This document shows positions 42,142 through 63,239 of a stretch of 64,000 nt of DNA, one piece after another. The DNA comes from Croceitalea dokdonensis DOKDO 023 (lineage in GTDB: Bacteria > Bacteroidota > Bacteroidia > Flavobacteriales > Flavobacteriaceae), in the NCBI RefSeq assembly GCF_001306415.1, contig NZ_LDJX01000002.1, forward strand, positions 558,001 to 622,000. Reading direction: 5' to 3'. The translations under genes and the position numbers were made by a program. The notes under the pieces were generated by a model. The model was not told the DNA's origin, did no database searches, and was given only the letters and a program-made list of their open reading frames with translations. Numbering within the stretch: position 1 is the first letter of the stretch; each line of letters starts with the position of its first letter.

Positions 42142-44397
<2,256 letters not shown>

Positions 44398-44513
44398 CTA
44401 AAAAACCGTTCTTTTATTTTTTTGCGTTATATTAACATTGGTAATGCCTATACTCAGTTCCTTTGAGTATTGTTTTTGATTATATTAGAAGGGTGAAATA
44501 CCCTTAAAACGAC

Positions 44514-45347: not shown

Positions 45348-45521
45348 ATGTATTTGCGTCATAAATAGGCTAAATCTATAGGCTTTACAACGCACGAATA
45401 CAGCTAAATGAAGTGGGGCATAAGGTTCAAAACTTTTGTTTTATGAACCCAACCAATAACGGTTTAGCTCCCTTACATACATAATAAAACTATATAATGC
45501 GCACCTAAACCCCCTTAAAAC

Positions 45522-46151: not shown

Positions 46152-46331
46152 TTTCCAAGCCTGGGTGTTTCCAAAACTTAGTTCAATTTACCACTGTATT
46201 AGGTTATGCAGGCTGGAAATGACACCACAAAGCAGAAATTTATTTAACTATAGGCTCCAAAATGCCAGAAGATTTCCGTAGTTGAAATTACGCTTTTACA
46301 TGGTGGCCCCCAATCACATCTACATGTGAAA

Positions 46332-49300: not shown

Positions 49301-49370
49301 TTAGCGCTTTACCTAATAAAAGGAAGCCCAATACTAAAGAATAGGTAATACGTGTGGTCAGAAGCTGCAA
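46332..49370 (-). CDS. Two-component propeller sensor histidine kinase
   Basis: A 1012-residue membrane sensor. After a signal/anchor (MQLLTTRITYSLVLGFLLLG) come many Reg_prop repeats of the LLWIGTRQGLNRYDG type forming two seven-bladed propellers (about residues 35-680), then a Y_Y_Y domain (SYFKNTKNTFSTKLEGFENRWFYQGN) at about 710-780, one membrane helix (RRWWFIALVLIAISALVYSMF), and a HisKA_3 domain with His827 (ISSDLHDEVGSLLSG). The HATPase shows ALTNIVRHSDA and GLGLSNMRMRA. Unlike hybrid systems of Bacteroides it carries no receiver or HTH; the separate regulator at 45522 fills that role. It is divergent from the RidA-DUF6090 region. Confidence 0.94.
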   Translation of the reverse strand: MQLLTTRITYSLVLGFLLLGKALNAQNPSQIDVLTTGDGLLFRDVSDIVQDNKGLLWIGTRQGLNRYDGTNFKAYTNDKQNPFFIEEDFIETNMLYDAAANYVWFLANDRLFALDISKDSVTAFDYQGLENNRVLEIYMAPDNAIWAVTDDYWQSNKKNPKLYLKKFENGKFNTVTTVDSFKYIFNNLSFAADGSVWWATTRGTNKYSPKGKLLEEHILDTYDWNGDDIHYLPQFFDSHNTHYYFPPSRGGIDIYDASTRASQTIYKTKEIIRRAKEDEQGSIWFASDTGLYCMNTDGLFSDYTNLLKSKLDYSKINNLFIDKSSLLWVATDNGLFKIRTQKQLFANLFKSKKEGWGHSMRGIFEDAKGRLFSLCETKHQLWYQTKTGKVDSLSLKTKSGKPLNLMYDASFMVTDSSKTKAYAIGNGICEIDLKTGLAQVYDQFKANNNIHGPNPLLGLNDGRLLFGFTLEYLTVFNPKTKEHQTVFNNINEQTNIRNFLFFEESRDKNCVWIGTRDDGILKVNLNGTRLQTFNTSSTPKLGKHHILCLEEDTDGSLWIGTYGGGLSHISADGTSITNYTTVVGLANDNVVAILPQGPNKLWISTYNGLSLFDKTTKEFQNFYTEDGLSHNEFNYSSFFKGSNGLYYFGGMNGVNVFNPKTLQEAVSPPDIQLLGISGYNSKTQQNYKKDYAQKDLKAFTASPYDQYFEVSWLLPSYFKNTKNTFSTKLEGFENRWFYQGNATSVRYNKLPAGNYVLKVKGANAKGSESANMLSVPITVKQIFYRRWWFIALVLIAISALVYSMFRYRLQQVLAMERLRTKISSDLHDEVGSLLSGLAMQTELLEANASEADKTRLQKIASISRNAVSQMRDLVWSIDSRRETIADLIERMRELVEELLLPKDIAFTMDASTIKNLDKKLPAQTKQDIFLIFKEALTNIVRHSDATFVEISLTNQFNGCKLSIQDNGSEKTTYKSSGLGLSNMRMRAKNLKGNLRFQNNNGFSVHLELPFTI

Positions 49371-49770
49371 AAGTTAGGGTTGTTGATAATAGCCTACTGC
49401 TAAATATACGAAAGTCACTGGCAAATACCACATGAAAATGTGATTGAACGCGGCTCACTAATCCACTAATTTGCAAACAATTAAAAGCGTTTAGGTGTTG
49501 TATGCCTAGGCTGTAACCGTAAAAACTGGATAGGTTAACATACCCTAGGGCTTTGGATAACGCACAACCAAAACATATGTTTTTAAATCCCTGTACTACG
49601 TAATGTAATCAATCCCGATCTAGAATTTTTTTTCCAATGAGAACACTTAATATTCTTTAAATCTACCCTGATTTGTTTAGAGATGTGATGGTAGAATTTC
49701 AGCTTTAAACCAATAATTAGGACTTGAGTATAACACAATTCTAAACAAAATCAACAAACAAGAAAACAGA
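49371..49770 (+). other. Gene-free divergent control region
   Basis: These 400 bases separate the propeller kinase from the RidA lipoprotein gene. They are AT-rich and contain no convincing coding frame, hairpin or exact TAnnTTTG box; on the kinase side TATATTTA (about 49404-49411) is one mismatch from the consensus. Confidence 0.5.
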
Positions 49771-50277
49771 ATGAAAAAACAAGTTTCCATACTCCTTGTG
49801 CTATTTGCTTGGTCTTTTACCTTTCTAAGTTGCGAACAACAAAAAGGAGAAACCAAAACAATTGAAAAAGAAGCAGTAGTTGAATCCAAAAAACCGGAAT
49901 ACTTCCAGCTTAGACCTGATGTAGAAAGGGCCTATGGCTACAGACATGCCGTAAAGATTGGAAAGAATATCAAAATTTCGGGAGCAGTAAGTATGGATGG
50001 TGAAGGCAACCCAACGGCCATTGGTGATATAGAACAACAGATGAAAAACTGTTATGCCGATTTAGAAAAGATTTTAAAGCACTATGGATGCACCTTTGAC
50101 GATGTGGTTAAGGAGGACATTTTCACTACCGATATGGCTCAAATGTTGGAAAAATCGGCCTACCGGGCAGAGGTTTATAAAAACGGGTTTCCCACCGGTT
50201 CTTGGCTTGAGGTAAAAGGGTTGGCACTACCTGAATTTATGGTGGAAATAGAACTTGAAGTACATAAAGCTGAATAA
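49771..50277 (+). CDS. RidA/YjgF-family lipoprotein
   Basis: A 168-residue protein with a lipoprotein signal (MKKQVSILLVLFAWSFTFLSC, Cys21). The mature domain is a YjgF/YER057c/UK114 fold: VKIGKNIKISGAVSMDGEGNPTAIGDIEQQMKNCYADLEKILKHYGCTFDDVVKEDIFTTDM and PTGSWLEVKGLALPEFMVEIELEV. The catalytic Arg of true RidA imine deaminases (in IPxRxx) is not present in the usual place, so deaminase activity is doubtful. Acylated envelope-located RidA-like proteins are unusual but known in Bacteroidota. It lies about 100 bases upstream of the first DUF6090 gene, same strand. Confidence 0.85.
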   Translation: MKKQVSILLVLFAWSFTFLSCEQQKGETKTIEKEAVVESKKPEYFQLRPDVERAYGYRHAVKIGKNIKISGAVSMDGEGNPTAIGDIEQQMKNCYADLEKILKHYGCTFDDVVKEDIFTTDMAQMLEKSAYRAEVYKNGFPTGSWLEVKGLALPEFMVEIELEVHKAE

Positions 50278-50376
50278 AAGCAGGAACGCTCAAGATGGCG
50301 TATTTTACATAGCCCGTTAACCAGGCACATTACTCTTTACGGGTGGCTGTGCTTCATTATAACTACCCTTAAAGCA

Positions 50377-51156
50377 ATGATAAAATTCTTCCGAAAAATC
50401 CGGCAAAAACTACTCGCTAAAAACCGTTTCTCAACGTACCTGCCCTACGCCATTGGAGAAATCATCCTAGTGGTTATTGGGATTTTAATTGCGTTGCAAA
50501 TAGATAGTTGGAACCAAGACAAGAAAGACAAAAAGTTAGAAGCTCAATATTATTGCAGATTATTGGAGGATGTTAATCAAGATTTTACAAATTATAATAA
50601 TTATATGGCTCTATTAAACGAAAGGATAGACGACAATAACACCTTAATCCAAAGGCTACAAAACCATATAATGCCTTTAGACAGCATTTCACCGCTTATT
50701 CTAAAATCTGTAAAATACGCCAATAGAAATATTACTGCCACTACAGATGCTTTTGAAGATATAAAGCACAGTGGAAACTTAAATATTATCAAAGATTTAT
50801 CCGTAAAAAATCAATTAGCAGACTATTACAAGACTTTAGCAAAAACAAGTGCTGTTATAGAAAGTAACGGTAAGTCAATTACAGATAAACGCTTTTTAGA
50901 AATTGAAGATGTCATAAGTTCTGGATGGATAAAACTCCTAGAAAACATTAATGCAATTGACGCGTCAAAAGTTAATCTAAAATCACTGAAATCAAATATA
51001 AATTTTACTAATGATGTAAGGTTAAAAATGACAAACGATGCTGTCTTTTATTTAGGAATTAACTCTAGAAACAAACAACTGTTGAAATTACTCGAAACCG
51101 AAATTCTATCCATGATTGATTTACTCAATTCAAAATGTCAAAAGCATAGTGATTAA
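50377..51156 (+). CDS. DUF6090-type membrane protein, copy 1
   Basis: A 259-residue protein: basic N-terminal helix (MIKFFRKIRQKLLAKNRFS), one membrane helix (about residues 24-42, with the conserved Glu28) and a ~215-residue C-terminal domain outside the cytoplasm. The common motif is HSGNL at residues 131-135. The sub-type begins YYCRLLEDVNQDF after the helix and shares its full length with copy 7 (also ending NSKCQK.xD). The C-terminus ends SD-stop inside the GTG start of copy 2 (8-base overlap). The upstream leader (cttcattataac) resembles those of copies 3 and 9. Function unknown. Confidence 0.9.
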   Translation: MIKFFRKIRQKLLAKNRFSTYLPYAIGEIILVVIGILIALQIDSWNQDKKDKKLEAQYYCRLLEDVNQDFTNYNNYMALLNERIDDNNTLIQRLQNHIMPLDSISPLILKSVKYANRNITATTDAFEDIKHSGNLNIIKDLSVKNQLADYYKTLAKTSAVIESNGKSITDKRFLEIEDVISSGWIKLLENINAIDASKVNLKSLKSNINFTNDVRLKMTNDAVFYLGINSRNKQLLKLLETEILSMIDLLNSKCQKHSD

Positions 51157-51919
51157 ATTCTTCCGAAAAATTAGGCAAAAACTGCTCGCTGAAAATAGGT
51201 TCAGCAAATACCTTCTATATGCCATAGGTGAAATCGTTCTCGTAGTCATTGGAATCTTGATTGCACTTCAAATCAATACTTGGAGTGAAAATCAGAAAAT
51301 AAAACAAGAAGAAAAAATACTCATCACGGGTTTAATACAAAATATAGAAAGTGACATTAGGAGTTTAATAGCAGTGACAAAAAGTGATAGCACTTTAATA
51401 GATGCCAATAGAATACTATTGAGCGCATTCAAGAATGATTTGATACGAAGAAATAAACCCTTGCTAAAACAGAGAATTTTAGAAGCCTCAGGTACGAGCA
51501 GTTTCATACCCAGTCAAATCACTTTTAATCAAATGCAATTTTCAGGTAAGCTCACTTATATCTTAAACGATTCCATTAAAAATAAAATTCAATCTTATTA
51601 TGATAATGTTTCAAACGTACTCGACTATCAGGAATCTAACTTAAAATTAATATACGGTACGGCCATTGAACTTGCTCCTTTCCTTGATATCAATTCGGTG
51701 TTGCAAATAGCTTTACCGGATTTCGCAAAGATGGAAGTGGACGCCTTTGATAATTCGTTTTTTTATGAAGATATACAATCTGATAGGGTAAAAGAATTTG
51801 CCGATAAATCTACTCTCAAACAAGCGTTGATGGTACCAGTGTACAGGACGCACAGTGAATTACTTCAAGAAGGAATAGCATTAAGGGAAAGTTTGATTCA
51901 GTATATAGATGAAAAATAA
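51149..51919 (+). CDS. DUF6090-type membrane protein, copy 2 (GTG start)
   Basis: A 256-residue paralogue. The start is taken as GTG at 51149 because the alignment with all other copies begins exactly there (GTG-ATT-AAA instead of ATG-ATT-AAA); an upstream ATG would add residues encoded by copy 1's 3' end. It overlaps copy 1 by 8 bases. The membrane helix is intact (AIGEIVLVVIGILIALQINTW). The common motif is FSGKL at 131-135. The C-terminal domain (LLKQRILEASGTSSFIPSQI) does not resemble copy 1. It ends 45 bases before copy 3, with a repeated leader between. Confidence 0.85.
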   Translation: MIKFFRKIRQKLLAENRFSKYLLYAIGEIVLVVIGILIALQINTWSENQKIKQEEKILITGLIQNIESDIRSLIAVTKSDSTLIDANRILLSAFKNDLIRRNKPLLKQRILEASGTSSFIPSQITFNQMQFSGKLTYILNDSIKNKIQSYYDNVSNVLDYQESNLKLIYGTAIELAPFLDINSVLQIALPDFAKMEVDAFDNSFFYEDIQSDRVKEFADKSTLKQALMVPVYRTHSELLQEGIALRESLIQYIDEK

Positions 51920-51964
51920 CGAACCCACAACAACCAATTCTGCATTATAACCAACCACTAACCA

Positions 51965-52708
51965 ATGATAAAATTCTTTCGAAAGATTAGGCAAAAACTG
52001 CTATCTGAAAATAAATTTAAGAAGTATCTAATTTATGCTATTGGAGAAATCATTCTAGTAGTCATTGGAATTTTGATTGCATTGTCAATCAATAATTGGA
52101 ACCAAAAACGTATTCAGAAACTTGAAGAACAGACTATTGTTAAAAACATTCATATTGAATATTTGCAAAACAAAACGAGGGTAAAAATAAAAATTAAAGA
52201 AGCTGAATTATGTGAGGCAGCGCTAAGACAATTAATGAAGATGATAGGTAAAGACGAAGATTATATTAAAAAACAAAATGTCGACAGTTTACTTTTTTAT
52301 GCCCTTGACCCTCCTATCTTCAGACCTTCGGAAAACACCATTTCTGGTCTCATACAATCTGGGCGTTTGGAATTGCTCCAGAATCAGGAATTGGTTGATT
52401 TAATATATGATTGGGGACGAACGATGAAGGCATTGACAGATAGAACAACAAGATTTACCGCAAAATTAGACAACGAGATTTGGCCGTATTTATCAAAAAG
52501 ATATTCCTTTAAAGATATGGATGCCTATGGCCCATTAAATTGGAAAGAAAAATCGAACCTGAAGGTAAATAAACTTCAAATCTTTAAAGAGATTGAATTC
52601 GAAAACAATACTGACGAATTTTTATACTGGATTGCAGATAACAAAAACCTATTGTTAGAATTAGACCTATTGATTGATAAAATTCTTATGGAAACCCAGT
52701 ATGATTAA
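51965..52708 (+). CDS. DUF6090-type membrane protein, copy 3
   Basis: A 247-residue paralogue with KNIHIEYLQNKTRVKIK after the membrane helix and the motif QSGRL at 131-135, the same position as in copies 1 and 2. The helix is followed by SINNWNQ rather than QINNWN, a variant shared only with copy 4. Its leader (ctgcattataaccaacca) matches those of copies 1 and 9, pointing to duplication of upstream sequence too. The stop (TAT GAT TAA) overlaps the ATG of copy 4 by 8 bases. Confidence 0.9.
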   Translation: MIKFFRKIRQKLLSENKFKKYLIYAIGEIILVVIGILIALSINNWNQKRIQKLEEQTIVKNIHIEYLQNKTRVKIKIKEAELCEAALRQLMKMIGKDEDYIKKQNVDSLLFYALDPPIFRPSENTISGLIQSGRLELLQNQELVDLIYDWGRTMKALTDRTTRFTAKLDNEIWPYLSKRYSFKDMDAYGPLNWKEKSNLKVNKLQIFKEIEFENNTDEFLYWIADNKNLLLELDLLIDKILMETQYD

Positions 52709-53492
52709 ATTTTTTAGAAAAATTAGACAAAAATTACTTTCTAAGAATAAGTTCAGCAAGTATCTGATATATGCATTCGGCGAAATTATTCTCGTGGTCA
52801 TTGGAATCTTGATTGCATTGAGTATCAACAATTGGAACGAAAAACAGAAAGACTTGGTCAAGGAGCAATTAATTTTAAAACAATTATTCAGTGAATATCA
52901 AAGTAACCTAAAGCAACTTGATGAAAAAATACTGATGCGCAATCAGGCACTTGAGGCCTGCAATAATTTGCTAAAGCAAATAGATAATCCCACCTCGGCA
53001 ATTGATGAAAACGCGTTTTATCGATCATTGTGGATCATATTTAGGGACCCGACCTTTGACCCCATAAAAAACGATATCGTTGGTTCAGAAAATCTTCGCC
53101 TCATACAGAATGACAGCTTGGTAAGGTTTTTATCCAATTGGTCTTCTGAGGTCTTTCAGGTTCAAGAAATGGAGTTGGAGTACCAAAAATTTCGAACGGA
53201 GATCGTAGGGCCGTGTTATTTTCGATTGGGTATTGCGAGAAACGTAAATAATAACTTATGGAAAGACGGATACACGCCCACCGAGGCATTGGACAAAAAA
53301 TCAAACCGCAAATTCACCATTAAACCAACAAAAAAAAGTGTGGATTTGACAAAGGTTCTTGCCGATGTTGAATTTGAGGGCATTGTGAGCCAAGTAATCA
53401 CAACGCATCAAGTTACAAACATTCAATCGCAAACGTTGCGCAATAGAATCCTGCACATACTGGACATCATAGCACAAGAAATTGAAGAATAG
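52701..53492 (+). CDS. DUF6090-type membrane protein, copy 4
   Basis: A 263-residue paralogue. An in-frame ATG 27 bases upstream is rejected since the array-wide alignment begins at 52701. It carries the SINNWNEKQKD variant of copy 3 after the helix, and the central motif is GSENL (residues 128-132), where the usual SSG is changed. The C-terminal part has a long helical stretch (FLSNWSSEVFQVQEMELEYQKF) likely to be coiled. It ends 24 bases before copy 5. Confidence 0.9.
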   Translation: MIKFFRKIRQKLLSKNKFSKYLIYAFGEIILVVIGILIALSINNWNEKQKDLVKEQLILKQLFSEYQSNLKQLDEKILMRNQALEACNNLLKQIDNPTSAIDENAFYRSLWIIFRDPTFDPIKNDIVGSENLRLIQNDSLVRFLSNWSSEVFQVQEMELEYQKFRTEIVGPCYFRLGIARNVNNNLWKDGYTPTEALDKKSNRKFTIKPTKKSVDLTKVLADVEFEGIVSQVITTHQVTNIQSQTLRNRILHILDIIAQEIEE

Positions 53493-53516
53493 AAGCCAAC
53501 ACGCAATAGTCAAGCC

Positions 53517-54260
53517 ATGATCAAATTCTTTAGAAAAATCCGTCAAAAACTACTCGCTGAAAATAGGTTTTCAAAATACCTGTTTTATGCTGCAGGCGAA
53601 ATCATCTTAGTTATGGTAGGTATTCTTTTGGCACTACAAGTAAATGACTGGAATACCAAGCGATTATTAAAGTCCAAAGAGCAAGTCTATTTACAACAAA
53701 TTAGAATTAGCTTAAACAATGATTTGGAAAACATAAAAGAAACAAAAGAATTTAATGCTTTAAAAGCGTCTTATATAGACTCAACCTTCATTGCATTAGA
53801 ACAGTCTTCTAATCCTGAAAAATATGTGCCTACAATTACTAATTATATTCCTAGAATGACTGAATTTGCTGTTTTTTATCCTAACAGCATTGCTTTTGAA
53901 AATATGACAGCTTCAGAAAATATAGACCTTATTACCAATACGGAGTTAAGAAAAGACCTTTCAATATATTACAAAATAGATTTTGTGAATAGCACCCAAG
54001 AGCGTATTAAAGAGCAAACGCGCCAATTTGCAGATGATATCTTTCCAAAATTGGGCAACAAACAAACTTTAAAACAATTTGCACAACACGACTCTCATTT
54101 ACGCGATATTTCAGAGGTTAGCATACATACTGACGTACAAGTCTATACGCACCTTTTAAATATGGCTTTTATTATGGATAGTCAAAATGAGCTTTTAGAT
54201 GCTACTATTGAAGACATAAAACGATTACTGGATTTAATTAAAGCTAATCTAAAATCATAA
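53517..54260 (+). CDS. DUF6090-type membrane protein, copy 5
   Basis: A 247-residue paralogue whose membrane helix is more diverged than in the others (AAGEIILVMVGILLALQVNDWN). The common motif is ASENI (residues 132-136). The C-terminal domain contains NNDLENIKETKEFNALKASYI and KFAQHDSHLRD-like helices, quite unlike neighbours. It ends 2 bases before copy 6. The divergence of the helix suggests an older member. Confidence 0.9.
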   Translation: MIKFFRKIRQKLLAENRFSKYLFYAAGEIILVMVGILLALQVNDWNTKRLLKSKEQVYLQQIRISLNNDLENIKETKEFNALKASYIDSTFIALEQSSNPEKYVPTITNYIPRMTEFAVFYPNSIAFENMTASENIDLITNTELRKDLSIYYKIDFVNSTQERIKEQTRQFADDIFPKLGNKQTLKQFAQHDSHLRDISEVSIHTDVQVYTHLLNMAFIMDSQNELLDATIEDIKRLLDLIKANLKS

Positions 54261-54262
54261 GT

Positions 54263-55027
54263 ATGATTAAATTCTTTCGCCGTATCCGGCAAAACTTGCT
54301 CTTGGAAAACAAAACTGGTAAATACCTTAAATACGCCCTTGGCGAAATTGTGCTCGTGGTGATTGGAATTCTCATTGCATTGCAGATTAATAATTGGAAC
54401 AATACCCAGCAAAACTTAAAAAAGGAACAAGAAGTATTAAAAAATTTAAAAGCTGAAGTCCTACAGAATTTAGAAGAGATTAAAAGAGACCATGAATTTA
54501 ATGTAGAATGTTTAGATGCTTGTTACACCCTTTTAGAAATCGATAAAGCCAAATCAGTTAATCCTCATAAAATAGATAGCTTAATGGGTACGGCATTAGA
54601 CTACGCCACTTTCGATGCGCGTTTAGGTGTTGTTAATGATGTTATTTCTTCAGGTAAGCTAGAGCTCATAAAAAACGAAGATTTGAGACTTTTATTAAAT
54701 CAATGGACTGGCGAATTAGGTGATTATGTAGAGGATGCAATGGTGCGAAGAAATTTTATTTCTAATAATTATGCCATTTTGACTAGGTACATACCTGTAA
54801 GAAATGGAGATAAAACACAGGATAGGTCCGATTATCAAAAAACATATAAAATAAAACCCATTAAAGTAGACATTAGTAATTACCAAAAATTCATTAATGA
54901 TACAGAAGTTGATAATGCTTGGTATAGCCATTATATAAATCAATCTTTTGTCACGATTAACGAGGAAGAAGTTGAGCGTTTTTTGTTGAAAATATTAGAT
55001 TTAATAGATAAAAATATCGATGATTAA
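54263..55027 (+). CDS. DUF6090-type membrane protein, copy 6
   Basis: A 254-residue paralogue with the N-terminus MIKFFRRIRQNLLLENKTGKYLKY; its first codons share the 'CGCCGTATCCGGC' spelling with copies 8 and 11. The central motif is SSGKL at 129-133. The stop (GAT GAT TAA) lies within the start of copy 7, an 8-base overlap. No Cys-rich or lipoprotein feature; presumed inner membrane with the bulk in the periplasm. Confidence 0.9.
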   Translation: MIKFFRRIRQNLLLENKTGKYLKYALGEIVLVVIGILIALQINNWNNTQQNLKKEQEVLKNLKAEVLQNLEEIKRDHEFNVECLDACYTLLEIDKAKSVNPHKIDSLMGTALDYATFDARLGVVNDVISSGKLELIKNEDLRLLLNQWTGELGDYVEDAMVRRNFISNNYAILTRYIPVRNGDKTQDRSDYQKTYKIKPIKVDISNYQKFINDTEVDNAWYSHYINQSFVTINEEEVERFLLKILDLIDKNIDD

Positions 55028-55799
55028 ATTCTTTCGCCGCATCCGTCAAGAACTGCTTTCTGATGGCAAGTTCTACAAGTACCTACTCTACGCCGTAGGT
55101 GAAATTGTTCTCGTGGTCATTGGTATTTTGATTGCCCTACAAATAGATAGTTGGAACCAAGACAAGAAGAATAGAAAACTAGAACAGCAATATTACTGTA
55201 GATTACTGGAAGACGTTAAACAGGACTATAGTAATTATGAATATTCCCTTGAATTGTTAAACGTAAGAATTAACGCGAATAACATTATGATTCAAAAGTT
55301 GTTAGACGACACCTTACCTTTAGAAAGCATCACCCCAAATCTTTTAAAATCCGTCAAATTTTCTAACAGAAATTATCGAGCCACAACTGACGCTTTGGAA
55401 GACATTAAATCGAGTGGAAATTTAAACATACTAACAGACCTTTCTGTTAAGAACAAGCTGGCCTCTTATTATGAGTCAATGGCTAGAACAAGCTCTATTA
55501 TAGAAACCAATGGAAAAGCCATAACAGATAAACGTTTTTTTGAAAGCAAGGATTTTGTTAGTTCCGGATGGATAAAGCTTGCTCAGCAATTGAACGGTAT
55601 CGATACCACAAAAGTGGACCTTGACTTACTAAATTCAAAAGTTAATTTCACAGCTGAAATAAGGGAAATAATGTTAAATGATGCCATGTTTTATTTGGGA
55701 ATCAATGCTCGCAATAAACAAATTTTGAAATCAGTTGAAAATGAGATTCTATCCATGATCGAATTACTCAATTCCAAATGTCAAAAGCCAAATGATTAA
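55020..55799 (+). CDS. DUF6090-type membrane protein, copy 7
   Basis: A 259-residue paralogue closely related to copy 1 over the whole length (QIDSWNQDKK after the helix, QYYCRLLEDVKQDYSNYEY, then DIKSSGNLNILTDLSVKNKLASYY, and the same NSKCQK tail). It is the clearest full-length duplicate pair in the array, about 4.6 kb apart. The 3' end overlaps copy 8 by 8 bases exactly as copy 1 overlaps copy 2, so gene and junction were probably duplicated together. Confidence 0.92.
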   Translation: MIKFFRRIRQELLSDGKFYKYLLYAVGEIVLVVIGILIALQIDSWNQDKKNRKLEQQYYCRLLEDVKQDYSNYEYSLELLNVRINANNIMIQKLLDDTLPLESITPNLLKSVKFSNRNYRATTDALEDIKSSGNLNILTDLSVKNKLASYYESMARTSSIIETNGKAITDKRFFESKDFVSSGWIKLAQQLNGIDTTKVDLDLLNSKVNFTAEIREIMLNDAMFYLGINARNKQILKSVENEILSMIELLNSKCQKPND

Positions 55800-56571
55800 A
55801 TTCTTTCGCCGTATCCGGCTCACACTAATTGAAAAAAACCAAATGGGAAAGTACTTTAAATATGCAATTGGTGAAATCCTTTTAGTAGTTATAGGAATAC
55901 TAATTGCATTACAGATTAACAACTGGAATGAAAGCCGAAAAGCATCCAAGCTAGAGCAGTCTTATTACTGTCTTTTGCTGGATGATATAGAACAAGACAA
56001 AGTACTAATTAAAGCATTGTTGAAAAACAACGAAAAACGCATAGAAAGTTCTCACAGAGCGATTGCTATAATTCAGAGCGAAAACGCAAACCTGGATGAG
56101 CTAGGAAAAGAAACGTTACTCTCAAGAAGAGATTTATTAGAGTCATTCATACCAAATTCTTCTACTTATGAAGACATTAAATCCAGTGGAAACATAAATA
56201 CGCTTAAAGACAAACAAATTAGGAAATCACTAAATCAATATTTAAAAAAAGTAGAAGGCTTTAACAATACAATGTTAGCAAATGTTACCCTTATAACTGA
56301 TCGATTGACAAAGTTTGAAGATTGGTTTAGTAATGGGGTAGTACACTCAAGTTATAAAGAAATTTTTCCCAAAGAAATACAAGATCAATTAAGCCGTGAT
56401 TTACCTGACAATATTCGTGATGAAATAAAATCAAGATTATATGAAGATTTAGTAATTGAAGGTATAATGTTAAGAAGACGTTCAGAGCTATTTGAAACTA
56501 TGGAAGACGAAGTAGATATAATGAAATCCAAATTAACTAAACGTTGCAAAATTAAAAACAAATTGAATTAA
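55792..56571 (+). CDS. DUF6090-type membrane protein, copy 8
   Basis: A 259-residue paralogue whose first ~50 residues (MIKFFRRIRLTLIEKNQMGK, YFKYAIGEILLVV) are nearly identical to copy 11, but its C-terminal domain resembles copies 1 and 7 more (SYYCLLLDDIEQDK, DIKSSGNINTLKDKQIRKSL). This mix of N- and C-terminal relatives looks like a recombinant. It ends 51 bases before copy 9. Confidence 0.9.
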   Translation: MIKFFRRIRLTLIEKNQMGKYFKYAIGEILLVVIGILIALQINNWNESRKASKLEQSYYCLLLDDIEQDKVLIKALLKNNEKRIESSHRAIAIIQSENANLDELGKETLLSRRDLLESFIPNSSTYEDIKSSGNINTLKDKQIRKSLNQYLKKVEGFNNTMLANVTLITDRLTKFEDWFSNGVVHSSYKEIFPKEIQDQLSRDLPDNIRDEIKSRLYEDLVIEGIMLRRRSELFETMEDEVDIMKSKLTKRCKIKNKLN

Positions 56572-56622
56572 ATAACGCAAGCACAACAATGGCTTTGCTT
56601 CATTATAATCAACCAATAACCA

Positions 56623-57406
56623 ATGCTGAAATTCTTTCGAAAAATTAGACAAAACTTACTAATGGAAAACAAAACAGGCAAACCTGCCTTACCGGCAGGC
56701 AGATACTTTAAATACGCCATTGGGGAAATCATCCTTGTGGTTATTGGAATCCTTATCGCATTACAGATTAACAACTGGAACGACCAACGCAAACTCAAGC
56801 AACAAGAGCAAACCTATTATTGTAAAATAAGCGAAGACTTAAAAACAGATTTAGAGAATATTGATCGCGCTCTGGCCTCCCTAAAAGAACGAAAAAAAAC
56901 CGCGAAGAGATTCCTGATTAACCTATTGAAAATACAGAAAGACAAGACCATTCTTTTACAAAACTATTTGGGTGCTATTCGAGCTTATGACTATATCCCA
57001 ACAAAAGCAGCCATTGTAGATATTACCTCTTCAGGAAAATTGGAAAACCTAAAAAATAGTGCATTAAAAAATGAAATTCTTAATCATTATTCCCAACAAG
57101 ATTATGCACTTAAAATAATCGACAAAAATGATGAGCCATTATTTTCGGCAAATATTTAGCTATGGCGATTATACAAGTTTTGGAATACACGAATTGCCTT
57201 TATATAAAGATGAATATGGTGATAAACTTAGTTCTCTATTAAAAAGCAGTGAATGGCAAAAAGACCCTGATAACGCACTTTTTAAACATCTTAAAGACCA
57301 TATGAATATGACTGTAATACTTTGTACAAGAGAACAACAATTGTTGGATGATATCAAAATATCTTCGGAAAAGTTATTTAGTAAGTTATCCCACTATTGC
57401 CAATAA
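56623..57406 (+). pseudogene. DUF6090-type copy 9, frameshifted and with palindromic insert
   Basis: The first frame (56623-57159) reads 178 residues and stops after IIDKNDEPLFSANI. The +1 frame from about 57128 to 57406 continues the homology with copy 13 (IFSYGDYTSFGIHELPLYKDEYGD..., ending SKLSHYCQ). The intact paralogue copy 13 bridges the break as IIDINDKAHNQKLFEIERFADFGFQEV. A one-base indel near 57130-57145 (in or next to TTATTTT) therefore splits the gene, or there is a sequencing error. It also carries a 21-base in-frame insert (56683-56703; see below). Confidence 0.8.
56683..56703 (+). repeat. In-frame 21-nt palindromic mini-repeat in copy 9
   Basis: Seven codons (PALPAGR) with CCTGCC ... 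GGCAGG arms are inserted between the basic helix (ENKTGK) and the membrane helix (YFKYAIGE). The other copies join GK directly to YF/YL, so the insert adds exactly 21 bases. The same insert at the same codon is in copy 14. Confidence 0.85.
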
Positions 57407-57407
57407 G

Positions 57408-57504
57408 ATGATAAAATTCCTTAGAAGGTCGAACAAAAAGTAAAGGTCTGGCAGACCTTTGATAGCGAGGAGCCAGACGTTGCGTAGGCCAAAAAACAAC
57501 ATAT
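57408..57504 (+). repeat. 97-bp leader repeat A with aborted DUF6090 start
   Basis: It opens with ATGATAAAATTCCTTAGA, the beginning of a DUF6090 gene, then diverges and stops after 11 codons (TAA at 57441-57443). A perfect 9-bp hairpin AAAGGTCTGGCAGACCTTT (57442-57460) follows and GGAGCCAGAC beyond. It ends where copy 10 begins. It is homologous to 59060-59156, which has the same 97-base spacing to the next gene. Confidence 0.8.
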
Positions 57505-58275
57505 ATGATTAAGTTCTTTAGACAAATTAGACAAAATTTATTGTCCGACGGAAAAACTGGAAAGTATTTCAAATACGCCATTGGCGAAATCATCCTTGTG
57601 GTCATTGGTATTCTCATTGCACTTCAGATTAACAATTGGAATGAGCACTTGAAGGGAAAAAAATCAGCCGAGACCCAATTGCGTCAATTATCTCAAAATG
57701 TTTCAGGTGACCTTATATTGTTAAATTCCTTAAAAACCATTGTTACAGGCACCTTAAGGTCGTGTCATAAGCTTTCTGAACAATTTCAACTCATAGAACC
57801 CTTTGATTCATTAACCACAAGCTATATCATAGACAATATCTTCGAACGGAATTTTTATGGTAATACTTCAGCTTTTACAAAATTAAATCAAAGTGATGAG
57901 TTTTCTATTTTACCCAAAACCTTGCAAAACGATATTACACATTACTACAACTTATTAAATCGTGTAAAGGAGCGGGAAGAGATTTCCAATACCTTCATTA
58001 AGAAAGATTATGAGCCATATTATTTTGATAATTACAGTATCTATCACAGAAAAGCTAGCAATCAGCATTCTATTATCACTCAATACTATAAAAACGATAA
58101 AAGGAAACCCGTTGCGCTTAACATAGACAAAATCACAAATGACCATAAAATGGCTACATTAATATATGCTAGATACTACCAATTAAAGAACCAACAAAAA
58201 ACCTACCAAGAGGCTATTGAAAAGGCTGAACAGGTTCAAAAGTCTATTAATGATTATCTAAAATTAAATGAATGA
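57505..58275 (+). CDS. DUF6090-type membrane protein, copy 10
   Basis: A 256-residue paralogue with N-terminus MIKFFRQIRQNLLSDGKTGK. The C-terminal domain is distinct (LRQLSQNVSGDLILLNSLKTI). The central motif is weakly kept (LNQSDEFSIL), the most deviant in the array. It overlaps copy 11 by 4 bases (ATGA). The 97-bp leader repeat A precedes it. Confidence 0.9.
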   Translation: MIKFFRQIRQNLLSDGKTGKYFKYAIGEIILVVIGILIALQINNWNEHLKGKKSAETQLRQLSQNVSGDLILLNSLKTIVTGTLRSCHKLSEQFQLIEPFDSLTTSYIIDNIFERNFYGNTSAFTKLNQSDEFSILPKTLQNDITHYYNLLNRVKEREEISNTFIKKDYEPYYFDNYSIYHRKASNQHSIITQYYKNDKRKPVALNIDKITNDHKMATLIYARYYQLKNQQKTYQEAIEKAEQVQKSINDYLKLNE

Positions 58276-59015
58276 TTAAATTCTTTCGCCGTATCCGGCG
58301 CACACTAATTGACCAAAACCAAATGGGAAAGTACTTTAAATACGCTATTGGTGAAATACTACTTGTAGTTATCGGAATTTTAATCGCACTGCAGATCAAT
58401 AACTGGAATGAAGACAGAAAGACCAACAATGTAAGGAACAATTATCTTAACCAAGTAGTCATAGATTTAGAAGCGGACAAAGCCTATTACACCAAGGTTA
58501 TTAACAGTTTAGAGAAAAATTTGGTGAAATATGAAGGCTATAAATCGTTATACGACACCCCAGATTTAGAGATGTTAGAGGTTCTTTATTATGTAAAAGA
58601 GAATTTCACCAATTTTACGCTTCGAATAGAAATCAATACGAGTACCATTAAAACGATGATAAACACAGGCACCATTAACTTGATTGAAAATCCGCTTCGC
58701 GATGAGCTATCAAAATATGTAGGCAGACAGACAAGGAGCGTTAATATTTATGAGGGTAATGCAGATGCCTCTCAGTTAATAGGTGTCCAATTAATGAGTA
58801 AAGGATACTACCCTCAGATGTTAGAAAGATTAGCTAAACAGCCCAAACTCGCAAGAGCCTTAGGTATTGATGATAATCTTCCAAAAGCCCTACTTGAACT
58901 TGATGCTTATTTAGATTTAGTTGAATTTAATGAAGTTAATGTCATCAAAGCCTTCAAGGAGTTAAAAGCAGTTGCAGATGAGTTAATTGTGCAAATAAAC
59001 AATGAAATCCAATAG
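58272..59015 (+). CDS. DUF6090-type membrane protein, copy 11
   Basis: A 247-residue paralogue. Its N-terminus (MIKFFRRIRRTLIDQNQMGK, YFKYAIGEILLVV) matches copy 8 closely, base for base over long stretches, but the C-terminal domain (VRNNYLNQVVIDLEADKAYYT) does not resemble it. The central motif is NTGTI. The start overlaps the stop of copy 10 by 4 bases. 141 bases separate it from copy 12, filled by leader repeat B. Confidence 0.9.
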   Translation: MIKFFRRIRRTLIDQNQMGKYFKYAIGEILLVVIGILIALQINNWNEDRKTNNVRNNYLNQVVIDLEADKAYYTKVINSLEKNLVKYEGYKSLYDTPDLEMLEVLYYVKENFTNFTLRIEINTSTIKTMINTGTINLIENPLRDELSKYVGRQTRSVNIYEGNADASQLIGVQLMSKGYYPQMLERLAKQPKLARALGIDDNLPKALLELDAYLDLVEFNEVNVIKAFKELKAVADELIVQINNEIQ

Positions 59016-59059
59016 CGAAAGCCTACTAATCTAAGTACATACTAATTGACCTGTAAGCA

Positions 59060-59156
59060 ATGATAAAATTCTTTAGAGGGCCAAACAAAAAGCAAAAGTC
59101 TGGTAGACCTTTTAAAGCCAGGAGCCAGCAAAAGCACTGGCTTTTAAATAAACAGT
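59060..59156 (+). repeat. 97-bp leader repeat B with aborted DUF6090 start
   Basis: It begins ATGATAAAATTCTTTAGA and reads MIKFFRGPNKKQKSGRPFKA before leaving the homology; the hairpin AAAAGTCTGGTAGACCTTTT has one changed base relative to repeat A. It runs to the start of copy 12, again exactly 97 bases. The two leaders share most bases over their first ~70. Confidence 0.8.
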
Positions 59157-59957
59157 ATGATTAAATTTTTTAGACTTATCCGACAAAAACTGCTCTCAAA
59201 CCCGCCCGAACATACCGGTTCCGCACGGGCGGGAAATCGTTTCTCAAAGTACTTGCTCTACGCCATTGGTGAAATTATTTTAGTAGTCATAGGCATTTTG
59301 ATTGCACTACAAATCAATAATTGGAATCTTACCAAACAAGACAGAAAAACAGAGCAAGAAAACCTTCTAGCGCTTCAAAAGGAGTTCTCTCATAATATCA
59401 CCATACTTCAAAAAGTTATCCTTCAGAATAATGAGAATATTTACAGCGCAGAAAAGATGATTCAATCGTTTAGCAAAACATCTAAAGACACCATTACAGA
59501 GCAAACAATGGCTATTTATGGCAGTAAAACCTTTGGTGTAGAAATAAATTTTGAGCCTGAAACTGGTGTTCTCACTGAGATCATAAGCTCCGGTCAATTA
59601 AAAATTATACAAAACAATGAGTTAAAACATAAGTTAGCTGGATTTAAAAGCAAGTTTCATGAAATTGAACAACAAGAAAAAGAAGTTCTAGAGTACCGAA
59701 ACATGGCTATTAAACAAATGATTAATGAAGCTAATATGGAAAGAGTTTATGCAGATTTAGGATTAAGGAAGACATATATTAATACTGAATTTGAGGTCAC
59801 CGGAGCCAAGGCTATGTTGAACTCACTACCTTTTTTAAACCAAATAGTTTTATATCAGTCCAGCTCAAATGTCACTAATCAGGCATTCTACGAACCCATG
59901 GAAAAAGAAATTGAATTGATACTGGAATTAATAGCTAAGCGAGTAAAGGAATTTTGA
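59157..59957 (+). CDS. DUF6090-type membrane protein, copy 12 with 33-nt in-frame insert
   Basis: A 266-residue paralogue. Between LLS and NRFSKYL it carries eleven extra residues (PPEHTGSARAG region), from a 33-base insert at 59201-59233. The membrane helix and C-terminal domain (KTEQENLLALQKEFSHNITIL ... IISSGQLKIIQNNELKHKLAGF) are intact. The C-terminal domain is related to copy 14 (LTDIISSGNLNLIQNEELRQKIASF), showing paired ancestry. Confidence 0.9.
   Translation: MIKFFRLIRQKLLSNPPEHTGSARAGNRFSKYLLYAIGEIILVVIGILIALQINNWNLTKQDRKTEQENLLALQKEFSHNITILQKVILQNNENIYSAEKMIQSFSKTSKDTITEQTMAIYGSKTFGVEINFEPETGVLTEIISSGQLKIIQNNELKHKLAGFKSKFHEIEQQEKEVLEYRNMAIKQMINEANMERVYADLGLRKTYINTEFEVTGAKAMLNSLPFLNQIVLYQSSSNVTNQAFYEPMEKEIELILELIAKRVKEF
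59201..59233 (+). repeat. In-frame 33-nt palindromic mini-repeat in copy 12
   Basis: CCCGCCCG and CGGGCGGG are perfect 8-bp arms around a 17-base centre. Removing these 33 bases restores TCA-AAA-AAT-CGT, the S-K-N-R seen in copy-1-like genes, so the insertion is precise and frame-preserving. It is GC-rich in an AT-rich gene. Confidence 0.85.
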
Positions 59958-60003
59958 TAAACACATCAATGATTGTACATCTGTCTCACCAATCCATTAA
60001 CCT

Positions 60004-60765
60004 ATGATAAAGTTCTTTCGAAAAATCCGCCAAAAACTACTTGCTGAAAACCGATTCAGTAAATACCTTCTTTATGCCATTGGCGAAATCATCTTGGTGG
60101 TCATTGGCATCTTGATTGCCCTTCAAATCAATAATTGGAATGAGAACATCAAATCCATAGCACTGGAAAAAGCCTACTACTGTAAAATTGCAGAGGACTT
60201 GCAGGTAGATATCAAAAATATAGATAGTTCAATGGTCACTATAGATAAGCGTTTAGAAAGTGCAGAACGGTTTTTAAAAAACCTTTTAAAAATTCAAAAG
60301 GATAAACAAGTTATTTTTAAAGACTTTATACCAACATTTAGGTATTATAAATTTATCCCAACTAAAGCAGCTATTGTAGATATTACGTCTTCTGGAAAAT
60401 TGGAAACGCTGCGCAATCAAACCTTGAAAAAAAGAATATTAAGCCATTACACAGAACAAGATAATGCACTACAAATTATTGATATAAATGACAAAGCGCA
60501 TAACCAAAAACTTTTTGAAATTGAAAGATTTGCAGATTTTGGATTTCAAGAAGTGCCAGAATATCAAAGCATAATTGATGAAGAATTGCAAGGATTATTG
60601 TCTAGTACACAATGGCAACAGAACCCAAATGACGAGCTATTTGTAAAAATTAAGGATGTTATGATTTTAGGTATACTTAGAACTCAACGTGAAAAAGAGC
60701 TTCTTACAGCCATTAAAGCTGGTGCCGAAGAATTGAGTGGTTGGTTAGTTGAAAACTGCAATTGA
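60004..60765 (+). CDS. DUF6090-type membrane protein, copy 13
   Basis: A 253-residue intact paralogue that serves as the template for reading the frameshift in copy 9: the two share KAYYCKIAEDLQVDIKNID / TYYCKISEDLKTDLENID, then IPTKAAIVDITSSGKLE and the C-terminal region with SSTQWQQNPND and LLTAIKAGAEEL. The motif SSGKL is present. It ends one base before the start of copy 14. Confidence 0.92.
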   Translation: MIKFFRKIRQKLLAENRFSKYLLYAIGEIILVVIGILIALQINNWNENIKSIALEKAYYCKIAEDLQVDIKNIDSSMVTIDKRLESAERFLKNLLKIQKDKQVIFKDFIPTFRYYKFIPTKAAIVDITSSGKLETLRNQTLKKRILSHYTEQDNALQIIDINDKAHNQKLFEIERFADFGFQEVPEYQSIIDEELQGLLSSTQWQQNPNDELFVKIKDVMILGILRTQREKELLTAIKAGAEELSGWLVENCN

Positions 60766-60766
60766 T

Positions 60767-61552
60767 ATGATTAAATTCTTCCGCCATATCCGCAAAAGAT
60801 TAATTAACCACAACCAAACGGGTAAACCTGCCTTGCCGGCAGGCAGGTATTTTAAATACGCTATAGGCGAGATATTCCTTGTAGTTATTGGGATTTTGAT
60901 TGCGTTACAAATAAATAATCTCAATAACAATAGACAGCAAAGAAAAATAGAGCGCACTTATTTATCATCACTAAAATCTGAATTTAAAACTAACCTAAAT
61001 AAAATTGATGACTGTCTCACAAAAAATAAAAATCTAATAAATTCGGTTGAGAACATGCTATCATTATTTGATACTACTATTCGGGACACCGTTAGTGAAA
61101 AAGTAGTGTCCGACATTATATACTCAGTATTTAAAGGAGATGCAACATACACACCTTCAAAAGGAGTCTTAACTGATATTATTAGCTCTGGGAATCTTAA
61201 TCTAATTCAAAATGAAGAACTAAGACAAAAAATCGCATCTTTCGAGAGCACATTGGATTATTTAAAAATACAAGAAAACTATACGCTTACAACGAAAGGG
61301 ATAATGTTACAGCAATTAAATAAATATGGAAGTGTACGGAGAGTTTTAGCAAACAGAGGTCTCAATTTTAAGTATAAATCAATTTCTGACAATTCAAAAA
61401 ATACAGGGGTTTTTGGTTTAATTGAATTTGAAAACAATCTTTTGGACTACTATCTAACCATTCAGGCGACTAATGGACCAAGATTTTTTGGCGGAATAAA
61501 GGAGCAAATAGAGCAAATTTTGGTTGACCTTGAATTGGAGATAAAAAAGTAA
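60767..61552 (+). CDS. DUF6090-type membrane protein, copy 14
   Basis: A 261-residue paralogue and the last of the array. An ATG 18 bases upstream is rejected in favour of the alignment start MIKFFRHIRKRLINHNQTGK. It has the PALPAGR insert before YFKYAIGEIFLVVIG. After the helix it reads QINNLNNN, so the near-invariant Trp of INNWN is changed. The C-terminal domain is related to copy 12. It is followed by a 108-base gap and the convergent glyS gene. Confidence 0.9.
   Translation: MIKFFRHIRKRLINHNQTGKPALPAGRYFKYAIGEIFLVVIGILIALQINNLNNNRQQRKIERTYLSSLKSEFKTNLNKIDDCLTKNKNLINSVENMLSLFDTTIRDTVSEKVVSDIIYSVFKGDATYTPSKGVLTDIISSGNLNLIQNEELRQKIASFESTLDYLKIQENYTLTTKGIMLQQLNKYGSVRRVLANRGLNFKYKSISDNSKNTGVFGLIEFENNLLDYYLTIQATNGPRFFGGIKEQIEQILVDLELEIKK
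60827..60847 (+). repeat. In-frame 21-nt palindromic mini-repeat in copy 14
   Basis: Seven codons (PALPAGR) with arms CCTGCC and GGCAGG at the same codon position as in copy 9, differing by two bases from it. It lies in the linker between the basic N-terminal helix and the membrane helix. Confidence 0.85.
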
Positions 61553-61660
61553 CGAAAGTGAACCAGCGTTTACATTTGCTTGTAGGTTTAAGGCACACTA
61601 AAACAGTAATACTTATCAATGGCCAAAGATTCCACAACGGAATCATACAAAGCAAGATGC

Positions 61661-63202
61661 TTAAATCCGCTTTAACCATTCCCGCATATCCACCTCTTTG
61701 GCAATGATGCCCTTTACCTTATCCAGCTTAACACGCTGCTGTTCCATGCTGTCCCGGTGGCGAATGGTCACTGTTTCATCTTCCAAGGTCTGGTGGTCCA
61801 CGGTAACGCAAAATGGCGTTCCATTGGCATCCTGCCTGCGGTAACGGCGCCCTACTGCATCCTTTTCATCATACGCAACGTTAAAATCCCACTTTAATTC
61901 ATCTACCAACTTTTTGGCCACTTCTGGCAAGCCATCACGTTTTAGCAAAGGTAAAATAGCAGCTTTGGTAGGGGCCAATACGGCTGGTAATTTTAACACG
62001 GTTCGTGTTGTGTTGTTGTCCAATTCTTCTTCTAGCAGGGAATTGGAAAAAACCGCTAGAAACATGCGGTCCAATCCAATGGAAGTTTCTAACACATAGG
62101 GCACATAGCTTTTGTTTTCTTCGGGGTCAAAATATTGCAGTTTTTTACCAGAATGTTTTTCATGTTGACTTAAATCAAAATCCGTTCTGGAATGGATACC
62201 TTCCAGCTCCTTAAACCCAAATGGGAACTTGAATTCGATATCCGATGCCGCATCTGCATAATGGGCCAATTTTTCGTGGTCATGAAAGCGGTAGTTATCC
62301 GCGCCCATGCCCAATGACAAATGCCAGTTAAGACGTTTTTCTTTCCAAGTATCGTACCACTCCTTTTGCGTACCGGGCTTTATGAAAAATTGCATTTCCA
62401 TTTGCTCAAACTCACGCATCCTAAAAATAAACTGCCTTGCTACAATTTCATTTCTAAAAGCTTTCCCTGTTTGGGCAATACCAAAGGGAATTTTCATCCT
62501 CCCGGACTTCTGCACGTTCAAGAAATTCACAAAAATGCCTTGTGCTGTTTCGGGCCTCAGATACAGGTCCATGGCAGAATCTGCGGAAGCACCCAGCTTG
62601 GTGCCAAACATAAGGTTAAACTGTTTTACATCTGTCCAGTTCTTGGAACCTGATAATGGGCATGCGATTTCCAATTCCTCAATCAGCGCTTTGACATCGG
62701 CCAAATCTTCATTTTCCAATGATTTCCCCAGACGTTTAAGAATTCCGTCTGCCTTGGCTTGGTAATCCAATACCCGCTGATTGGTTTCCAGAAACTGTTG
62801 CTTGTTAAAACTATCACCAAAACGCTTTGCAGCCTTATTTACCTCTTTATCTATCTTGGACTCAATCTTGGCGACATAATCCTCTACCAAAACATCTGCC
62901 CTATACCGCTTTTTTGAATCTTTGTTGTCAATCAAAGGGTCATTAAAGGCATCTACGTGACCAGAGGCTTTCCAAGTGGTTGGGTGCATGAATATGGCAG
63001 CATCCAACCCAACGATATTATCATTGAGCTGTACCATGGCCTGCCACCAATATTCCCGAATGTTCTTTTTGAGTTCTACCCCATTTTGGGCATAGTCATA
63101 GACTGCACTTAAACCGTCATAAATTTCACTGGATTGGAAAACATAGCCGTATTCCTTAGCATGTGAAATTACCTTCTTAAAAATGTCTTCTTGGTTTGCC
63201 AT
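61661..63202 (-). CDS. glyS: Glycyl-tRNA synthetase
   Basis: A 513-residue class II synthetase of the alpha2 type, which charges tRNA-Gly. The start at MANQEDIFKKVISHAKEYGYVFQSSEIYDGL matches the family; an ATG 18 bases upstream adds no homologous residues. Class II motif 1 and 2 regions are visible (LYLRPETAQGIFVNFLNVQKSGRMKIPFGIAQTGKAFRNEI, RMREFEQMEMQFF) and motif 3 (VLETSIGLDRMFLAVF), followed by the anticodon-binding domain (LAPTKAAILPLLKRDGLPEVA, YRRQDANGTPFCVTVDHQ). The gene is convergent with the DUF6090 array, and its 3' end marks the array's right boundary. Confidence 0.97.
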   Translation of the reverse strand: MANQEDIFKKVISHAKEYGYVFQSSEIYDGLSAVYDYAQNGVELKKNIREYWWQAMVQLNDNIVGLDAAIFMHPTTWKASGHVDAFNDPLIDNKDSKKRYRADVLVEDYVAKIESKIDKEVNKAAKRFGDSFNKQQFLETNQRVLDYQAKADGILKRLGKSLENEDLADVKALIEELEIACPLSGSKNWTDVKQFNLMFGTKLGASADSAMDLYLRPETAQGIFVNFLNVQKSGRMKIPFGIAQTGKAFRNEIVARQFIFRMREFEQMEMQFFIKPGTQKEWYDTWKEKRLNWHLSLGMGADNYRFHDHEKLAHYADAASDIEFKFPFGFKELEGIHSRTDFDLSQHEKHSGKKLQYFDPEENKSYVPYVLETSIGLDRMFLAVFSNSLLEEELDNNTTRTVLKLPAVLAPTKAAILPLLKRDGLPEVAKKLVDELKWDFNVAYDEKDAVGRRYRRQDANGTPFCVTVDHQTLEDETVTIRHRDSMEQQRVKLDKVKGIIAKEVDMREWLKRI

Positions 63203-63239
63203 GGGGCAAATGTAAAACAATGCCCAAAAAGAGGGAAAG

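What the first reader, a model, noticed from the sequence alone, without database searches (positions are those of the whole stretch)
50377..61552. Fourteen-gene tandem array of DUF6090-type membrane proteins
Seen: fourteen head-to-tail plus-strand homologues in 11 kb, each with a basic helix, one membrane helix and a large presumed periplasmic domain. Known: DUF6090 proteins are small flavobacterial membrane proteins without assigned function, often several per genome. Inferred: such dense clustering with a constant N-module and variable C-domain is the architecture of a diversifying surface or sensor/immunity repertoire rather than of a metabolic operon. It is the best candidate here for an undescribed system.
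Basis: partly seen in the sequence, partly recalled or inferred. Interest (0 to 1): 0.9.

Follow-up and report, generated by a model that had tools for sequence, protein, structure and literature searches.

The report
Swappable membrane-protein repertoire with fixed head
A bacterium carries fourteen neighbouring genes for membrane proteins that share one fixed membrane-anchoring front end but have very different outer parts; comparisons suggest that the outer parts pass between distant bacteria and are joined to each host's own front end, so this looks like an uncharacterised exchangeable protein repertoire whose job is still unknown.

Summary
Fourteen co-oriented DUF6090 (PF19578) genes fill 50377-61552 (one frameshifted, one just under the Pfam cut-off), with two truncated copies of the 5' head between them. 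Each has a basic N-terminal helix, one membrane helix, and a C-domain predicted all-helical, without a fold match. The first ~45 codons are constant; past them DNA identity falls to background.

Across 10 genomes the two halves have different histories. Heads group by genome (nearest head in own genome 64 of 105, shuffles 22). C-domains do not (25.5 of 105, chance), and relatives cross genera and classes. One array looks recently exchanged between two species (C-domain dS 0-0.10, three flanking genes 0.43-2.59), and one head was replaced on a nearly unchanged C-domain. The family is in 97 of 149 sampled genomes of the same family, and in 45 copies in one genome of another class. I found no paper naming it.

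The role is not shown. My best guess is a membrane-tethered immunity-like repertoire (polyimmunity/rAID-like); a sensor repertoire is the main rival. No recurrent partner gene was found.

The parts
50377..51156 (+). g01 DUF6090; C-domain relative of g07 (63%)
51149..51919 (+). g02 DUF6090, GTG start overlapping the g01 end by 8 nt; C-domain orthologue of G007.01 (77%) with a head more diverged at synonymous codons
51965..52708 (+). g03 DUF6090
52701..53492 (+). g04 DUF6090; C-domain 61% identical to G053b.04, a genome of another class
   Evidence: model
53517..54260 (+). g05 DUF6090, 1 bit under Pfam cut-off
54263..55027 (+). g06 DUF6090
55020..55799 (+). g07 DUF6090
55792..56571 (+). g08 DUF6090; its first 150 nt are 87% identical to those of g11
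56623..57159 (+). g09 DUF6090, first part of a frameshifted gene; its head carries the 21-nt palindrome
57128..57406 (+). g09, tail in another frame
57505..58275 (+). g10 DUF6090; C-domain orthologue of G007.02 (72%)
58272..59015 (+). g11 DUF6090
59157..59957 (+). g12 DUF6090; GC-rich inverted-repeat insert in the head
60004..60765 (+). g13 DUF6090 (first structure model)
60767..61552 (+). g14 DUF6090; its head carries the 21-nt palindrome
56683..56703 (+). 21-nt palindromic insert in the g09 head (PALPAGR)
60827..60847 (+). 21-nt palindromic insert in the g14 head; with g09 the only two copies found in the genome
59201..59233 (+). GC-rich inverted-repeat insert in the g12 head
   Evidence: read from the sequence
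57408..57476 (+). truncated head followed by a hairpin element (relic)
59060..59128 (+). second truncated head with the same hairpin element

Best explanation
The array is a repertoire of inner-membrane-tethered, all-helical periplasmic proteins built from two parts. A constant head (basic helix plus membrane helix) anchors all copies alike. A variable C-domain gives each copy its own specificity. SHOWN by comparison: heads and C-domains have separate histories; related C-domains occur in distant genomes while heads follow the host; array content differs between species. INFERRED: arrays and C-domains are exchanged horizontally, and homologous recombination at the ~140-nt head, which recurs about every 750-820 nt, is how C-domains are exchanged, deleted and duplicated without breaking the neighbour, because the head's first bases carry stop codons for the gene before it. 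INFERRED, weaker: the role is pre-emptive protection. Each C-domain would bind and neutralise one kind of agent that reaches the periplasm or inner membrane (a rival's toxin, a bacteriocin or an incoming phage protein), as in polyimmunity loci and rAID arrays, with the copies made together from an operon-like array.
For: Nearest-neighbour test on 105 of 120 catalogued genes (8 of 10 genomes; the 14 genes of G033 and G061, close to G045, and one G006 head not followed by DUF6090 were dropped): nearest head in the own genome 64.3 (shuffles mean 21.6, max 38.4, 0 of 2000 reach it); nearest C-domain 25.5 (mean 21.8, 444 of 2000 reach it). Without G049: 29.9 of 65 (0 of 2000) against 9.0 of 65 (1444 of 2000). 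C-domain relatives whose heads are no more alike than the C-domains: G049.34/G053a.05 C 72%, head 63%, while the G049.34 head is 95% DNA-identical to that of its neighbour G049.35; G033.09/G049.29 C 60%, head 61%. Array exchange: G033/G045 C-domain dS 0-0.10 in 7 pairs, flanking genes 0.43, 0.87, 2.59. Head replacement: G033.02/G045.02 identical codons at same-residue sites 25 of 36 in the head, 185 of 187 in C, p=2.8e-8; window g02/G007.01 20 of 37 against 123 of 160, p=0.008; 10 of 11 chosen pairs have the lower share in the head. Role: low GC, one strand, tight spacing and differing content match the polyimmunity and rAID descriptions read in passages; no partner gene recurs widely, as expected if each protein acts alone on an outside agent.
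Against: No C-domain has a recognised immunity family or fold (10 of 14 proteins, one model). No toxin beside an array caught the eye, but neighbours were clustered and read, not searched systematically for toxins. No recombinase among the genes flanking the window array. In the window the heads show no overall synonymous excess (0.46 observed, 0.44 expected), so recent head conversion is not seen there in aggregate; the g02 result is one of 11 tests, uncorrected. G033.05/G053a.02 goes the other way (head 24 of 37, C 84 of 154), and in G006a.13/G049.26 the head (63%) is more alike than the C-domain (54%). Low GC is not general: the G049 array is 44-49% against 40.5% flank. No expression or localisation data.
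Confidence: 0.4

Rival explanations
1. A sensor repertoire: each periplasmic domain detects a different envelope signal, and the constant head and membrane helix pass the state to one shared partner in the membrane or cytoplasm.
For: The head is far more constrained than the rest: 20 invariant columns, all within the first 40 residues, among them a G-E pair at the start of the membrane helix and G35/A39. Both models give a membrane helix that continues unbroken to about residue 95, as in many bundle sensors (the comparison is recalled). Genome-specific heads fit co-evolution with a host partner.
Against: No output domain was seen, and no kinase, regulator or channel recurs widely next to the genes. 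The fold search gives only very weak hits to bundle sensors (aspartate receptor 2asr E 0.42, NarQ fragment 5jeq E 0.53).
Confidence: 0.27
2. The heads pair with each other, so that the copies form mixed membrane assemblies (an envelope scaffold or adaptor) with different C-domains.
For: Small residues in the membrane helix (G27, G35, A39), invariant in all 14; heads resemble each other within a genome more than between genomes.
Against: A genome with a single match exists (G005); the repertoire content differs widely between species.
Confidence: 0.13
3. The array mostly reflects repeat-driven gene amplification: the head is a good recombination substrate, small nuclease and IS200-type genes settle in the arrays, and most copies have weak or redundant function.
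For: Head relics and hairpin elements; an IS200-like transposase gene joined to heads of G033 and G061, with a decayed relative in G053; DUF559, PDDEXK_3 and GIY-YIG genes in or at arrays.
Against: 13 of 14 window copies are intact; C-domain dN/dS is well below 1; C-domains are kept across classes at 54-61% identity in two pairs.
Confidence: 0.12

Closest known systems
DUF6090 (Pfam PF19578)
   Same: All 14 proteins match it, 13 above the cut-off.
   Different: The model starts at about head residue 28 and the matches cover mainly the membrane helix and the first part of the C-domain; Pfam lists no function. The array structure and the head/C-domain decoupling were not found in print: no held paper contains 'DUF6090' or 'PF19578'.
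Homogeneous polyimmunity loci (Zhang et al. 2012, PMC3482391; passages read)
   Same: Tandem, co-oriented, closely spaced paralogues that are often only distantly related; number and type vary between relatives; not interrupted by toxin genes; known in Bacteroidetes.
   Different: Immunity function not shown; the paralogues share a near-constant membrane head, which the passages read do not describe; G006 and G053 have more than one array.
rAID arrays of gut Bacteroidales (PMC12247911; passages, abstract part included, read)
   Same: Array of co-oriented genes of 100-300 codons with low GC.
   Different: No tyrosine recombinase among the genes flanking the window array; the conserved repeat here is coding (the head); no match to immunity families.

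Membership tests
DUF6090 (PF19578) | Profile score above the curated cut-off | tested here: met
   13 of 14 above 23.5 bits, g05 at 22.5
Homogeneous polyimmunity locus | Tandem same-strand paralogues with small spacers | tested here: met
   14 genes on one strand; 11 of 13 junctions 51 nt or less
Homogeneous polyimmunity locus | No toxin gene inside | tested here: met
   No other plus-strand gene of size lies inside the window array, only the tail of g09; some other arrays hold unrelated genes, not scanned for toxins
Homogeneous polyimmunity locus | Number and type of genes vary between close relatives | tested here: met
   8 of 8 genus genomes have the family, 1-17 matches; repertoires largely different in those compared. 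Species level only, not strains
Homogeneous polyimmunity locus | Members are immunity proteins that neutralise toxins | not testable with these tools
   No meaningful match in padloc and ncbifam (10 of 14 proteins) or PDB sequences (profile)
rAID | Tyrosine recombinase beside the array | tested here: not met
   Flanking genes are a RidA-like protein and a sensor kinase on one side and glycyl-tRNA synthetase on the other
rAID | Co-oriented genes of 100-300 codons, GC under 41% | tested here: met
   247-266 codons (g09 broken), array bins 33-35% GC
rAID | Conserved intergenic motifs | tested here: inconclusive
   Repeats reaching upstream of the start precede some genes (families D5 and D9); not compared with rAID motifs
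Bundle sensor (MCP-like) | Fold match to a known sensor domain | tested here: inconclusive
   No PDB match at E 0.001 or better for the g13 model

The most novel reading that the evidence does not exclude
A previously undescribed modular membrane repertoire in Bacteroidota: a constant coding head serves both as membrane anchor and as the recombination point at which horizontally acquired C-domains are exchanged and adapted to the host, possibly helped by small nuclease or IS200-type genes that live in the arrays. It would be a bacterial system of constant and variable parts for recognising outside agents.
Probability: 0.3. Interest if true: 0.87.

Novelty: new variant of a known kind. Interest (0 to 1): 0.7.

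Why it matters
A family without a known function and, as far as the searches show, without a paper occurs in 97 of 149 sampled genomes of the window's family, one per genus (94 over the Pfam cut-off), and reaches 45 matches in one genome of another class. That related C-domains occur across classes while heads stay host-specific makes a clear, testable claim: the head is host-adapted, the C-domain carries a portable specificity. If the role is immunity, this would be a large unmapped reservoir of defences.

Tried and rejected
Gene conversion in the window as the cause of head conservation: rejected in aggregate, since synonymous codon identity 0.46 is close to the 0.44 expected from codon usage; G049 (0.50 against 0.35), G006a (0.57 against 0.48), G053a (0.56 against 0.40) and G053b (0.63 against 0.40) do show an excess, G007, G033 and G045 a small one, G006b none. 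G001 values that use DNA are unreliable: its sixth gene runs off the contig and its DNA was empty in my script.

Phage or plasmid cargo: tblastn with g13 only found nothing in 50,697 phage and 72,556 plasmid records; in viral contigs 78 stretches matched a pattern and none was confirmed. PHROGs was not searched.

Dispersed repeat as source of the 21-nt head palindrome: rejected; with up to 2 mismatches 2 copies exist in the 3.88 Mb genome, both in heads. In the genus 6 copies in 3 of 8 genomes (that pattern included head sequence, so copies outside heads in the relatives were not sought). The hairpin element of the head relics: 2 copies in the own genome, 0 in 7 relatives at up to 2 mismatches, though looser likenesses are visible in G003 and G006.

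A partner gene: 275 proteins within 1.5 kb of DUF6090 genes in 61 loci, 60 of them with such a gene, clustered by BLAST; the widest cluster spans 5 genomes (amidohydrolase-like by eye), the others 3 or fewer, mostly shared synteny or small nuclease genes.

Array nucleases as drivers: DUF559 (4 genes), PDDEXK_3 (3), GIY-YIG (1) and IS200-like (2) genes lie in or within 200 nt of arrays. Seeds from these found 12 matches in 0.82 Mb of DUF6090 loci and 0 in 1.6 Mb of glyS loci. Biased, because the seeds came from the arrays and glyS regions are conserved. In genomes chosen for having one, most copies lie elsewhere: at arrays 3 of 17 PDDEXK_3, 2 of 24 Y1, 4 of 11 DUF559. Kept as a lead.

Defence island: G049's array is followed by SspB/C/D-like genes; neighbours in other genomes were not scanned for defence genes.

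Rfam: no match in 44000-64000. Fold search of the g04 model in the viral library: nothing at E 0.001.
Full report
WHAT IS THERE. Fourteen DUF6090 genes lie head to tail on the plus strand between a RidA-like gene and a two-component sensor kinase gene on the left and glycyl-tRNA synthetase on the right. Thirteen are intact; g09 is frameshifted. Five of 13 junctions overlap by 4 or 8 nt and 11 of 13 are 51 nt or less. The first 11 nt of the head contain a stop codon in frame +1 in all 14 genes and in both other frames in 9 of 14, so the head of one gene can end the gene before it. The genome has two further single copies on other contigs.

TWO PARTS. The 20 invariant columns of the 14-protein alignment all lie in the first 40 residues. 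In ungapped comparison, DNA identity between window copies is about 46-74% over the head and falls to 28-35% past it; the other arrays show the same fall. AlphaFold models of g13 and g04, from alignments of the 14 window proteins, agree in secondary structure: a short helix, a helix from residue 18 to about 95 that includes the membrane stretch, then further helices, with a poorly predicted stretch near 180-210 (mean pLDDT 79, pTM 0.67 in both). That these form a bundle is inferred; I did not measure the geometry. There is no PDB match (g13 model) or viral match (g04 model) at E 0.001, and no meaningful sequence match in PDB, ncbifam or padloc (the last two libraries were given 10 of the 14 proteins). 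The charge pattern suggests head in the cytoplasm, C-domain in the periplasm (inferred).

WHERE ELSE. All 8 held genomes of the genus have the family, with 1 to 17 matches. Of 149 genomes of the window's family (one per genus) 97 have it, 94 over the Pfam cut-off; the number scored is capped at 21 for several. In a phylum sample 7 of 61 have it, among them 5 of 5 genomes of family f20 in another class, one with 45 matches, 40 of whose heads lie within about 53 kb among other genes. The window's family is taken to be Flavobacteriaceae because its GlyRS is nearest to Flagellimonas olearia (90%). None of 80 glyS loci from named relatives carries a DUF6090 gene in the DNA held, at most 10 kb on each side, nor do the glyS surroundings fetched from G002-G006; in G007 one copy lies about 10 kb from glyS. 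G007 shares the left flank (kinase and RidA) with the window and has an array there; G006 and G001 share another site next to what looks like pgk (the name is recalled from the sequence).

SEPARATE HISTORIES. From 10 genomes I catalogued 120 heads. The nearest-neighbour test kept 105 from 8 genomes (dropped: all 14 genes of G033 and G061, which are close to G045, and one G006 head not followed by DUF6090). The nearest head is in the own genome for 64.3 of 105 (shuffles mean 21.6, none of 2000 reaches it); the nearest C-domain for 25.5 of 105 (mean 21.8; 444 of 2000 reach it); with C-domain matches of 50 bits or more only, 15 of 70. For the window: 9 of 14 heads and 1 of 14 C-domains. Without G049 the contrast holds. 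Three pairs from different genera or classes have C-domains 54, 60 and 72% identical but heads only 61-64% identical in DNA, while each head is closer (78-95%) to a paralogue in its own genome whose C-domain is not among the 35%-or-more matches. The best-of-many comparison favours own-genome paralogues, so the shuffled nearest-neighbour test is the fairer one. Window g04 has its closest C-domain in another class (61%).

EXCHANGE SEEN CLOSE UP. G033 and G045 are different species of one genus. Seven of their array genes are in the same order with C-domain dS 0-0.10, while three flanking genes have dS 0.43, 0.87 and 2.59; the arrays differ at one end and by single genes. G033.02 and G045.02 have nearly the same C-domain (185 of 187 same-residue codons identical) but different heads (25 of 36), p=2.8e-8. 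Of 11 chosen pairs 10 have a lower share in the head (one by a hair) and 1 a higher one. Four of these involve window genes: g02 p=0.008, g01 0.13, g10 0.44, g12 0.24, uncorrected.

ODD COMPANIONS OF THE HEAD. A 21-nt palindrome sits at one fixed point of the head in g09 and g14 and in four heads of G003 and G006, and was found nowhere else in the window's genome. In G006 one such head runs in frame into an unrelated DUF4440 domain behind what looks like a lipoprotein signal. In G033 and G061 an IS200-like gene (Y1 transposase) is joined to two different heads at about the same point, with a decayed relative in G053. Two truncated heads followed by a hairpin element lie between window genes; the element was not found in 7 relatives at up to 2 mismatches, but looser likenesses precede genes in G003 and G006 (by eye).

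FUNCTION. Nothing here shows the role. Clustering of 275 neighbours in 61 loci found no gene family in more than 5 genomes, and those in 3-5 are mostly shared synteny or small nuclease genes. I rank an immunity-like repertoire first, because the array anatomy fits the published descriptions of polyimmunity loci and rAID arrays (passages), because single C-domains are conserved yet portable, and because no fixed partner is seen. The sensor reading is close behind, because the head is so strongly conserved. I searched papers for DUF6090, PF19578 and related phrases and saw none on this family in the listings; most papers of subscription journals are not in that library.

LIMITS. Genomes are one per species, so there is no strain-level test. 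The head/C-domain comparisons rest on 8-10 genomes, with G049 giving 40 of 120 genes. DNA-based values for G001 are unreliable. Saturated synonymous sites weaken the window/G007 comparison.

Noticed in passing
L106:16212-17087 (G006): A DUF6090 head with the 21-nt palindrome runs in frame into an unrelated DUF4440 domain behind a lipoprotein-like signal.
   Followed up: partly
L127:8395-9060, L132:9437-10105, L129:7331-7624: An IS200-like (Y1) transposase gene is joined to two different DUF6090 heads at about the same point; a decayed relative lies in G053.
   Followed up: partly
L160:2011-2430, L180:4502-6325, L152:18670-18999: Small DUF559 (endonuclease-like) genes inside or at the end of DUF6090 arrays in three genomes, in one as two copies of equal length and equal score.
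   Followed up: partly
L126:4591-9884 (G049): The largest array seen is followed by SspB/SspC/SspD-like defence genes.
   Followed up: no
L109:8068-8547, L131:3634-4098: Small proteins with a hydrophobic stretch holding the text SLIFVG sit beside or near DUF6090 genes in two distant genomes; no Pfam match at E 0.001.
   Followed up: no
window 49771-50277: RidA-type (L-PSP) protein with what looks like a lipoprotein signal at its start, left neighbour of the array and kept in G007.
   Followed up: no
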